A DNA stretch of 64,000 nt from assembly GCF_002952775.1 (NCBI RefSeq), contig NZ_CP025066.1, forward strand, positions 2,108,001 to 2,172,000. The letters are read 5' to 3'. Shown piece by piece: positions 11,837-14,553 of this stretch (its first letter is position 1; the number at the start of each line of letters is the position of its first letter). Both the position numbers and the translations under genes were made by a program. The notes under the pieces are model-generated. The model made no database searches. It was given only the letters and a program-made list of their open reading frames with translations, and was not told where the DNA came from. The DNA is from Halalkaliarchaeum desulfuricum (GTDB lineage: Archaea > Halobacteriota > Halobacteria > Halobacteriales > Haloferacaceae).

Positions 11837-12115
11837 TCACCTTTCGCCGCCGCTGACGGGCGGGAACAGCGCGAGTTCGTCGCCCGCCTCGAGTTGAGTT
11901 TCCAGACCGTCGCCGGAGTGGACGGATTCTCCGTTGTGGAGGACGTTAATGTGATCCTGTAACTCGCCGTCCTCGTCGAGGATTCGCCCTTCGAGTGCGG
12001 GATGTCGTTCTAGCAGCGCCGCGAGCGCGTCGTCTACGGTGTCGCCAGGGGTGTCGATCTCGACGGTGTCCTCGCCGGCGACCTCGGCGAGGTCGGCGAA
12101 CAGTTTCCATTCCAT
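11837..12115 (-). CDS. samp1: SAMP1-like ubiquitin-fold protein (MoaD/ThiS family) with residues after the diglycine
   Basis: A 92-residue beta-grasp protein very close to Haloferax SAMP1: it begins MEWKLFADLAEVAG and has the conserved DHINVLHNGE and DELALFPPVSGG segments. SAMP1 is activated by the E1-like UbaA at its C-terminal Gly-Gly. It serves as a protein modifier, and the family also includes sulfur carriers for molybdopterin. Here the reading frame continues for two codons after the diglycine (ends GGER), so the protein would need trimming before activation. It starts 5 nt after the upstream TrkA-C gene, so it belongs to that transcript. Confidence 0.92.
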   Translation of the reverse strand: MEWKLFADLAEVAGEDTVEIDTPGDTVDDALAALLERHPALEGRILDEDGELQDHINVLHNGESVHSGDGLETQLEAGDELALFPPVSGGER

Positions 12116-12120
12116 ACGGA

Positions 12121-13320
12121 TCAGTCACTGCCGCCGGACAAAGAGGATTGCGCACCCGTCTGTTCCGGTTCCGTCTCCCCCCGGACTCGTCGCTCCGCCC
12201 GCCTGAGGCTGTCGGGCCGCCCGACGAGGTACAGTTCGTCGCCCGCCGCGAGGGCGTAGCTGCGGGGCGGGATCGCCGTGATCGATCCGTCGCGGGGCCG
12301 AACGGCGGCGACTGTCGGGCCCAGGTGGTCGATCGGCGCGCCGACCCATCCGCTTTCTGGTGCAACCGTCGCCACACTCATCGTCTCGTCGGCGTTGCGC
12401 AACAGCGAGGCGAACTCCCGGTCCGCCTGCGGCTCTGCGGGAAGCGTGACCAGCCGATACCGGCGTGTCTGTTCGACATTTTCGGCGTCGGACTCGTCGA
12501 GCGCGACGGTGGCGACGTCGCCGGCGGTCGCCCGGAGTTCGGCCGTGGTCACGCGTTTCGGCCCCTCCTCGTCGGTCCACAGCTGCACCGTGTCACCGGG
12601 AGTCGCTGCGTAGGGTGGGTCCGCCCGAACCGCGATCGCGGCGGTGCCGGGTGCGAGGGTCGGGCCGATGCCCGCCGCGCGCGAGCCGACGCCCAGATAC
12701 TCGACGGTTCCGTCCGAGGTGATTTCGAGGTCGACGTGTCCGACGCCGTAGTCTTCCTTGATGCGTGTAGTGAGTCGCTCTCTCAACTCCTCGACGGTGA
12801 TCCGGCGCGGGAAAAGCAGCGTTTCATCGCTCATCCGTTCTTTTGTCTCTGGGGAAACGGGATCGTAAGAGTCGATGTCGTTGATATCGGCGGCGGGTGG
12901 AAGCGTCACGGACGTGACGCGCCCGGCGCTGCGCACCACTTCCGACACGTCCCCCTGGAGTTGCCGGCCGCCGGCCATCGCTGCGGCGTTTCGTCCCATC
13001 ACGTCGCCAACGCGGAGACCTACCGGCGAGACGGCAGTGGCGACGCCCAGCGCGACGAGGTTGAAAAACGCCGTCGCTGGCTCGAACAGCCCGACCTGTT
13101 CGCCCGCGACGTACGATCCGAGGGAGGCGGTGTTGAGATACAGCGCGATCACGGAGACGCCGAAGATGATGGCGATCCCCTCCGGGAGTTCGTCGTTGAC
13201 GTACCACCGGTAGACCGCCGCCACGCTCCCGGAGGCGACGCCGGCGAGGATCGCGTACGTGAGCAGGTTCAGGAGGGCGACGTTCGGTTCCGCAAACGTC
13301 GCGGCCGGCATCGGAATCAT
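12121..13320 (-). CDS. Membrane protein with TrkA-C (RCK-C) domain, second of a pair
   Basis: A 399-residue protein. The N-terminal third has three hydrophobic spans (about residues 12-32, 45-62 and 80-105). It is followed by an extended soluble region and a C-terminal TrkA-C-like domain (about residues 315-385), with the family's G-x-x-L-Y-L-V-G ending (AGDELYLVGRP). TrkA-C domains bind small ligands, including c-di-AMP in several potassium transporters. ATG 13320 overlaps the TGA of the preceding gene (ATGA), which fixes the start; a longer frame reaching 13422 is rejected. Transport or regulatory function is inferred only from the domain. Confidence 0.85.
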   Translation of the reverse strand: MIPMPAATFAEPNVALLNLLTYAILAGVASGSVAAVYRWYVNDELPEGIAIIFGVSVIALYLNTASLGSYVAGEQVGLFEPATAFFNLVALGVATAVSPVGLRVGDVMGRNAAAMAGGRQLQGDVSEVVRSAGRVTSVTLPPAADINDIDSYDPVSPETKERMSDETLLFPRRITVEELRERLTTRIKEDYGVGHVDLEITSDGTVEYLGVGSRAAGIGPTLAPGTAAIAVRADPPYAATPGDTVQLWTDEEGPKRVTTAELRATAGDVATVALDESDAENVEQTRRYRLVTLPAEPQADREFASLLRNADETMSVATVAPESGWVGAPIDHLGPTVAAVRPRDGSITAIPPRSYALAAGDELYLVGRPDSLRRAERRVRGETEPEQTGAQSSLSGGSD

Positions 13321-14534
13321 GCTGCCACCTCCTCGAAGCCGGTGAGCGCATCGCGGGTGCCCACGACGAACAGTTCGTCCCCTGCAGAAAGCGCCGTCTC
13401 TCCCCGCGGCGTGATATCCCACCCGTCGTGTTTCGCTGCCAGGATGACGACGTCGTACGCCTCCCTGACGTTCACCTCGCCGATCGTGCTCCCATCCAGC
13501 GGCCCGCCCGCTTTCACGGAGACTTTACGGAAGCGCTTTCCGGCTCGACGCAGCAGTTGCGTGAGTTCGAACTCCCGTCGGGTTCCCCTGGAGAGAACCA
13601 TGACCTCCCCCCGTTCCGCCCGGAGGAGGGTGCCGGCGTCCGCCCGGTCGATAGCCACCGTCACCCGTCCGTCCCCGCCTATTGTCCGGTCGACAGGTGA
13701 CGGCGGAGGGGTCTCTTCGGGTTCGCCGCCGTCGGTTTTCGCCTCAACCGTGCTCGTTTCGGTGGACGTGCCCGACGACGCGCTCAACAGTGTCCCCTCG
13801 ACGGTGAGATCCGACGTGACGATCCGGATGGATTCACCCCGGACCAGCCCGGTGGGAACGAGTGCCGGCACCGACACTGCCCGCTTTCCGGAAGGGATCC
13901 GTTTCGAGAGCCCACCGACAGGCGGGGCCGCGGCGACGGTCGCCCGCGCCCGCTCGTCGATCGACACGACCGAGTTCGCCACGTCGAACTCGGTCCGGAG
14001 CTGATCTTCGAACCGCGACTCCAGCTCCGCGACGGGGAGGTCGGCCGGGAACGTCCACTCCTTGGCTTTGATCTCCTCGCGAAGGTCGGCCGAAAGCGGC
14101 GGATACCCCTCGAGGTCCTCGATATCGCCGACGACCGTCACCCGGACCCGTCCCCGCCCGCCGACCAGTTCGACGACGTCCGCCGACAGGGTTCGGTCCT
14201 TCAACCCCTTGAGAGACATCCGTCTGGGCACGTTCGCGCCGAGTTTGTCTCCCTTCGCGTGGGCGTACAGCGCGAGCATCAACACGACGACGATCGCCGT
14301 CAGGATAGCGACGGCGTTTTCGTCGGTCCGGATCGTCTCGTCGTTCAACGCGAGCAGGCCTCCGTTTATCCCTGCGATCGCGAGCGCGAGGACGATGACA
14401 CCGAATCCGGGTATCGACACTCCGGTGACGTACCGGAAGACGAACCCCAGTGTTCCAGCGACGAGGGCTGGAATGACTCCCGTGAGGACGCCCAGATAGA
14501 TCCCCAGCAGGATTTCGAACGGAAGCGATGGCAT
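13317..14534 (-). CDS. Membrane protein with TrkA-C (RCK-C) domain, first of a pair
   Basis: A 405-residue protein built like its downstream neighbour. It has hydrophobic spans at about 5-30, 35-60 and 75-95, a long soluble region with Val-rich strands (GRVRVTVVGD), and a Pro/Glu/Thr-rich linker near residues 245-265. The C-terminal TrkA-C-like domain ends AGDELFVVGTRDAL. The two proteins look like diverged products of duplication and may form a heteromeric sensor or channel. The TATA box at 14554-14563 supports ATG 14534. It heads a three-gene unit: two TrkA-C proteins, then SAMP1. Confidence 0.85.
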   Translation of the reverse strand: MPSLPFEILLGIYLGVLTGVIPALVAGTLGFVFRYVTGVSIPGFGVIVLALAIAGINGGLLALNDETIRTDENAVAILTAIVVVLMLALYAHAKGDKLGANVPRRMSLKGLKDRTLSADVVELVGGRGRVRVTVVGDIEDLEGYPPLSADLREEIKAKEWTFPADLPVAELESRFEDQLRTEFDVANSVVSIDERARATVAAAPPVGGLSKRIPSGKRAVSVPALVPTGLVRGESIRIVTSDLTVEGTLLSASSGTSTETSTVEAKTDGGEPEETPPPSPVDRTIGGDGRVTVAIDRADAGTLLRAERGEVMVLSRGTRREFELTQLLRRAGKRFRKVSVKAGGPLDGSTIGEVNVREAYDVVILAAKHDGWDITPRGETALSAGDELFVVGTRDALTGFEEVAA

Positions 14535-14553
14535 ACCCGTACCCACAGGGTCT

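What the first reader, a model, noticed from the sequence alone, without database searches (positions are those of the whole stretch)
11837..12115. SAMP1 homologue with two residues beyond the diglycine
The last codons read V-S-G-G-E-R-stop. Haloferax SAMP1 ends at the diglycine, which is adenylated by UbaA. An added Glu-Arg would block activation unless removed, as happens with eukaryotic ubiquitin precursors. This suggests a maturation step, perhaps by a JAMM-type protease, or a form not used for conjugation.
Basis: partly seen in the sequence, partly recalled or inferred. Interest (0 to 1): 0.58.

Follow-up and report, generated by a model that had tools for sequence, protein, structure and literature searches.

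The report
Capped SAMP1 that needs protease trimming
A small ubiquitin-like protein of a salt-loving archaeon carries two extra amino acids after the glycine pair it works with, and in its relatives such caps were seen only in species that also have the protease JAMM1, which suggests that JAMM1 trims the protein into its active form.

Summary
Window 11837-12115 (-) encodes a SAMP1 orthologue ending FPPVSGG-Glu-Arg-stop; the one same-genus genome seen ends GG-Glu-Gln, so it is not a sequencing error. It is not unique: 28 of 96 resolved family genomes (99 searched) and 70 of 380 resolved order genomes (392 searched) have SAMP1 caps, mostly 1-12 residues. The GG is kept in 96 of 96, while cap sequence drifts.

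New result: every capped SAMP1 seen lies in a genome with a JAMM1 desampylase. Order-wide, 70 of 274 resolved JAMM1+ genomes are capped against 0 of 106 JAMM1- (28 genera, 11 families). SAMP2 in the family sample: 42 of 78 against 0 of 12. JAMM2, in 99 of 99 family genomes, does not track the caps. Some SAMP2 are fused through GG to acetyltransferase or peroxiredoxin domains. This genome also extends SAMP2 by 12 residues, and has one E1 and an intact JAMM1.

Best reading: SAMP1 is made as a precursor and JAMM1 exposes the diglycine. Cleavage is inferred, not shown; the strictly phylogenetic test was underpowered. Capped carriers trimmed by JAMM proteases are known elsewhere.

The parts
11837..12115 (-). 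SAMP1 (MoaD-type ubiquitin-like protein) coding sequence, 92 aa, with a two-residue C-terminal cap
   Evidence: ORF; NCBIfam NF041918 SAMP1 130.8 bits over cut-off 60; Pfam ThiS; Haloferax SAMP1 structures
11846..11866 (-). FPPVSGG, the functional C-terminus with the diglycine (11846-11851)
   Evidence: Read; FPPV[S/T]GG kept in 96 of 96 resolved family genomes
11840..11845 (-). Cap codons GAA AGG = Glu-Arg beyond the diglycine, the proposed pro-peptide
   Evidence: same-genus genome has GAA CAG = Glu-Gln
11837..11839 (-). Stop codon TGA

Best explanation
The gene encodes pro-SAMP1. The E1-like enzyme UbaA needs a free C-terminal glycine, so the Glu-Arg cap must first be cut off; the desampylase JAMM1, encoded elsewhere in the same genome, most likely hydrolyses the Gly-Glu bond and exposes VSGG for adenylation, thiocarboxylation (MoaD role with MoaE) and conjugation. 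The cap sequence is probably of little consequence: a lineage that has JAMM1 can tolerate, and repeatedly acquires, short caps or even whole domains fused after the diglycine, whereas a lineage without JAMM1 cannot. Shown here: the cap, its recurrence, the intact GG, the constrained body and drifting cap, the co-occurrence with JAMM1, and the presence of JAMM1, one UbaA and MoaE in this genome. Inferred: the cleavage itself, its site and its enzyme.
For: Capped SAMP1 in 28 of 81 JAMM1+ and 0 of 15 JAMM1- family genomes; extended SAMP2 in 42 of 78 and 0 of 12. Order-wide 70 of 274 resolved JAMM1+ and 0 of 106 resolved JAMM1- genomes; by genus 27 of 70 and 0 of 28, Fisher 2.7e-5; stratified within families 6.7e-4. 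JAMM2 is in 99 of 99 family genomes, including the JAMM1- ones. Own genome: JAMM1 over the NCBIfam desampylase cut-off (155 against 130), UbaA over its cut-off (508.6 against 450), JAMM motif present, one ThiF-family E1, MoaE. Body against cap pN/pS 0.19 against 0.64 in a Halorubrum-type set; SAMP2 0.25 against about 1.0. Published: HvJAMM1 cuts linear SAMP1-MoaE after the SAMP1 glycine and restores function in vivo (PMC4443979); CsJAMM cuts Caldiarchaeum SAMP precursors (PMC6043591).
Against: No cleavage has been observed for this protein. Genomes share ancestry: in the family tree JAMM1 changes only 4 times and the independent-pairs test (3 pairs) cannot reach significance; the family-unit estimate is 0.005. 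Most JAMM1+ genomes (204 of 274 resolved) have no cap, so JAMM1 permits but does not require one. A GG-ending paralogue in this genome could supply the activity. G113, an incomplete JAMM1- genome, has an extended FPPVAGG paralogue.
Confidence: 0.8

Rival explanations
1. The cap is trimmed by general carboxypeptidases or other peptidases, and JAMM1 is incidental.
For: Caps are short and their sequences vary, which a general peptidase could handle.
Against: Caps should then occur in JAMM1- genomes too; 0 of 106 resolved order genomes and 0 of 15 family genomes show one. A carboxypeptidase does not easily stop at Gly-Gly (inference), nor free SAMP2 from a fused domain.
Confidence: 0.1
2. The capped SAMP1 is not processed and works without a free diglycine, for example as a non-covalent partner, while the GG-ending paralogue does sulfur transfer and conjugation.
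For: A GG-ending paralogue (FPPVAGG-stop) lies in the same genome.
Against: The diglycine is kept in all 96 resolved family genomes, 28 of them capped; the body remains constrained; it does not explain the link with JAMM1.
Confidence: 0.07
3. The link with JAMM1 is a by-product of shared ancestry, and the enzyme that trims caps is another one, such as JAMM2.
For: The strictly phylogenetic test was underpowered (3 independent pairs); JAMM2 is present in 99 of 99 family genomes.
Against: If JAMM2 were enough, caps would be possible in JAMM1- genomes, which all have JAMM2 in the family sample and none is capped. The pattern holds inside g10, g68 and g92 and stratified within families (6.7e-4).
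Confidence: 0.08
4. A sequencing error or misread stop adds the two codons.
For: None found.
Against: The same-genus genome has a cap of the same length, and caps occur in 27 genera of the order sample.
Confidence: 0.01

Closest known systems
Haloferax volcanii SAMP1 / UbaA / HvJAMM1
   Same: Orthologous modifier, E1 and desampylase; HvJAMM1 can cut a linear bond after the SAMP1 glycine, as shown with an artificial SAMP1-MoaE fusion (PMC4443979, passages)
   Different: Haloferax SAMP1 ends at the diglycine (7 of 7 Haloferax loci), so the enzyme's natural role there is removal of conjugates, not maturation
Caldiarchaeum subterraneum SAMP precursors (Csub_C0702, Csub_C1603) and CsJAMM
   Same: SAMPs with residues beyond Gly-Gly cut by a JAMM protease in vitro (PMC6043591, passages)
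   Different: A distant archaeon; no survey of caps against JAMM presence in the passages seen; sequences were not compared here
Bacterial capped sulfur carriers: PtmS2 (cap MV), PtmS3 (cap C), and the QbsD-trimmed carrier of thioquinolobactin synthesis
   Same: One or two residues after GG that need a protease (PMC6006322, passages)
   Different: Small-molecule sulfur donors in biosynthetic gene clusters, the protease often clustered with the carrier; here the genes lie about 0.7 Mb apart. Details of QbsE are recalled
Eukaryotic ubiquitin precursors and ubiquitin-ribosomal protein fusions
   Same: Translation as tailed or fused precursors, cut after Gly-Gly (PMC11354881, passages)
   Different: Trimmed mainly by cysteine-protease deubiquitinases (recalled), not by a JAMM protease

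Membership tests
SAMP1 | Match to the curated SAMP1 model over its cut-off | tested here: met
   NF041918, 130.8 bits against 60
SAMP1 | Conserved C-terminal diglycine | tested here: met
   VSGG at residues 87-90
SAMP1 | Diglycine at the very C-terminus of the gene product | tested here: not met
   Glu-Arg follow it; also not met in 27 other of 96 resolved family genomes, so it does not define the orthologous group
SAMP1 | Isopeptide conjugation to proteins and sulfur transfer to molybdopterin | not testable with these tools
   MoaE and UbaA genes are present
Capped ubiquitin-like carrier matured by a JAMM protease | Residues after an intact diglycine | tested here: met
Capped ubiquitin-like carrier matured by a JAMM protease | A JAMM protease with complete motif in the same genome | tested here: met
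   JAMM1 155 bits against cut-off 130; Glu23 and HSHx7SxxD
Capped ubiquitin-like carrier matured by a JAMM protease | Caps absent where the protease is absent | tested here: met
   0 of 106 resolved JAMM1- genomes capped, 7 of 113 unresolved
Capped ubiquitin-like carrier matured by a JAMM protease | Cleavage exactly after Gly-Gly | not testable with these tools
   Needs biochemistry or mass spectrometry
Capped ubiquitin-like carrier matured by a JAMM protease | Protease gene next to the carrier gene, as in some bacterial clusters | tested here: not met
   SAMP1 at about 2.12 Mb and JAMM1 at about 1.41 Mb of one contig

The most novel reading that the evidence does not exclude
In many haloarchaea JAMM1 is chiefly the maturase of ubiquitin-like modifiers and is therefore indispensable there: capped SAMP1, capped SAMP2 and natural SAMP2 fusions to acetyltransferase or peroxiredoxin domains form a family of precursors, comparable with ubiquitin-ribosomal protein fusions, whose processing ties modifier supply to a partner enzyme and lets one protease switch all modification on or off.
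Probability: 0.35. Interest if true: 0.68.

Novelty: new member of a known kind. Interest (0 to 1): 0.52.

Why it matters
If true, the archaeal desampylase has a second job, maturing its modifiers, that can be predicted genome by genome. Haloferax volcanii, the model organism, lacks the cap and so hides this job. It also gives natural archaeal examples of ubiquitin-like precursors and fusions, and a simple rule (no JAMM1, no cap) that can be tested in culturable Halorubrum species.

Tried and rejected
Rejected: sequencing error (same-genus cap); JAMM2 as sufficient enzyme (present in 99 of 99 family genomes including all 15 JAMM1- ones); simple stop-codon readthrough as the origin of caps (SAMP1 caps have a median of 2 residues, against a median of 39 for hypothetical readthrough of 68 capless genes, of which 29 had no stop within the flank held); a conserved cap motif (cap pN/pS 0.64 in 18 four-residue SAMP1 caps, about 1.0 for SAMP2 between two genomes). 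Inconclusive: the independent-pairs test on the family tree (3 pairs). No structure was predicted, since a protease-SAMP complex cannot be modelled with the tool.

Limits of the counts. Family sample: 99 genomes, SAMP1 ends resolved in 96 (G031, G040 and G050 had no listed position); SAMP2 found in 90 and all 90 read. Order sample: 392 genomes; 280 by the capless pattern (its last codon TRR would also accept Trp TGG, and not all 280 sequences were printed), 37 by the capped pattern, 75 by neither and searched by protein. Of these 75, 63 were settled by reading DNA and 12 were left unresolved and dropped: 5 JAMM1+ (G243, G184, G142, G252, G124) and 7 JAMM1- (G154, G161, G204, G352, G413, G424, G113). 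JAMM1- status is absence from the 279 genomes listed; 93 such rows were not printed. The genome lists and genus-unit counts used were transcribed by hand. The two samples overlap. The names SAMP3, arCOG assignments beyond, and details of QbsE are recalled.

Full report
Observation. The minus-strand ORF at 11837-12115 reads as described, ending V-S-G-G-E-R-stop with codons GTC AGC GGC GGC GAA AGG TGA. It is a SAMP1 orthologue: NCBIfam SAMP1 130.8 bits against a cut-off of 60, matched over residues 1-90, that is, exactly up to the diglycine; Pfam ThiS; closest solved structures are Haloferax SAMP1 2l83, 3po0 and 4hro. The same-genus genome G015 ends GGC GGC GAA CAG TGA, Gly-Gly-Glu-Gln-stop. The two bodies differ with pN/pS 0.24, so the gene is under constraint. 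The window is part of a single 3,313,120-base contig.

Not an isolated oddity. All 99 family genomes searched have a SAMP1-like match. The C-terminus could be read in 96: 28 have residues after the diglycine and 68 do not. All 96 keep FPPV[S/T]GG. Among 46 named loci from public genomes, 13 are capped, for example Halorubrum sodomense (TVGR), Halorubrum distributum (SVGR), Halorubrum ezzemoulense (AADR), Halalkalicoccus paucihalophilus (SAPR), Halopenitus malekzadehii (S) and Salinigranum salinum (RR); all 7 Haloferax loci are capless. On a tree of 96 family genomes the SAMP1 cap changes state at least 16 times and the SAMP2 extension at least 10 times.

SAMP2 too. The same genome's SAMP2 (NF041919) carries 12 residues after LRLIKGG. 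In the family sample 42 of 90 SAMP2 genes are extended, some by whole domains. All 7 g24 genomes read have a long extension, shown by Pfam to be a GNAT acetyltransferase domain in G095 and similar by eye in the others. Three of 3 g12 genomes have one too, AhpC/TSA peroxiredoxin by Pfam in G037; G014 and G020 resemble g12 by eye. The window's genome also has a GTG-started MoaD-like domain joined through VYGG to a DJ-1/PfpI domain.

Link with JAMM1. This genome has two JAB-family proteins. One is JAMM1: NCBIfam desampylase 155 bits, cut-off 130, with Glu23 and HSHPRGPPTPSETD, and similar to Pyrococcus JAMM1 structures 5lda and 5ld9 (organism recalled). JAMM1 is in 84 of 99 family genomes. SAMP1 caps: 28 of 81 JAMM1+ against 0 of 15 JAMM1-. 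SAMP2 extensions: 42 of 78 against 0 of 12. The second JAB protein, JAMM2, is in 99 of 99, so it does not track the caps. Order-wide (392 genomes) JAMM1 is in 279; resolved genomes give 70 capped of 274 JAMM1+ and 0 of 106 JAMM1-, with 5 and 7 unresolved. By genus the figures are 27 of 70 and 0 of 28 (Fisher 2.7e-5); counting each of the 11 families with a resolved JAMM1- genome once gives 0.005; stratified within families the probability product is 6.7e-4. Where one genus holds both states, capped members are JAMM1+ and JAMM1- members are capless: g68 and g92 and g10 (the capped g10 genome G053 is in 450 contigs). On the family tree alone the test has too little power: JAMM1 changes 4 times, and of 3 independent pairs none goes the other way.

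How it most likely works. Adenylation by an E1 needs a free terminal glycine (described for MoaD/MoeB in PMC4443979, passages). The genome holds one ThiF-family E1, which scores as UbaA (508.6 bits, cut-off 450), and one MoaE. A capped SAMP1 must therefore be trimmed before use. HvJAMM1 has been shown to cut an artificial linear SAMP1-MoaE fusion exactly after the SAMP1 glycine in vitro, and in vivo the cleavage and the resulting DMSO respiration depended on jamm1 (PMC4443979, passages). CsJAMM cuts Caldiarchaeum SAMP precursors (PMC6043591, passages). The cap itself looks like a disposable piece: pN/pS is 0.64 against 0.19 for the last 40 body codons in a Halorubrum-type set of 18 four-residue caps, and about 1.0 against 0.25 for SAMP2 in the two same-genus genomes. 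Caps are much shorter than readthrough would give, so their length is limited in some way that I cannot explain; there are long exceptions, such as G111.

What is known. Capped sulfur carriers in bacteria, and the need for a protease such as QbsD, are described (PMC6006322, passages). Iyer and colleagues proposed that JAB peptidases free ThiS/MoaD from fusions (PMC1779556, passages). Makarova and Koonin listed archaeal GG-ending proteins and suggested Jab as a deubiquitinase; the words 'precursor' and 'extension' do not occur in that text (PMC2948915, passages), and its table lists a GNAT acetyltransferase gene as a genomic associate of a halobacterial ThiS family. A survey of archaeal fusions reports MoaD-MoaE fusions and the need for their cleavage (PMC11237513, passages). 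My searches of the open library showed no report of natural haloarchaeal SAMP caps or of their link with JAMM1; most subscription papers, including the original HvJAMM1 study, were not seen.

Verdict. It is a new member of a known kind, with a genome-wide rule that I did not find in print in those searches: no JAMM1, no cap.

Noticed in passing
L005:1480-1716 (+), G000:C1:1541383-1541616: The same genome's SAMP2 has 12 residues after its diglycine (LRLIKGG-NGNVGFGDDCRA); the same-genus SAMP2 has 12 different ones.
   Followed up: yes
L003:802-1779 (-), G000:C1 near 2922552-2922815: A MoaD-like domain joined through VYGG to a DJ-1/PfpI domain (GTG start), a third ubiquitin-like domain in this genome with sequence after Gly-Gly.
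   Followed up: partly
L004, G000:C1:2395242-2395508 (-): A longer MoaD-like protein (ThiS family) that ends in FMFCL without a diglycine.
   Followed up: no
L147-L150, L232, L153, L172: SAMP2 fused through its diglycine to AhpC/TSA peroxiredoxin (L147 by Pfam; L148-L150 and L232 by eye) or GNAT acetyltransferase (L153 by Pfam; L172 by eye) domains, all in JAMM1+ genomes.
   Followed up: partly
L312, G113:C52:4250-4850: A 59%-complete genome without a JAMM1 match has a FPPVAGG paralogue with a long extension: a possible exception to the rule, or a JAMM1 missing from an incomplete assembly.
   Followed up: partly
window 12121-14546 (-): Two neighbouring membrane-type genes with TrkA-C domains lie directly upstream of SAMP1 (the first with a sub-threshold Pfam match); the nearer one stops 5 bases before the SAMP1 start codon, as in an operon.
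   Followed up: no
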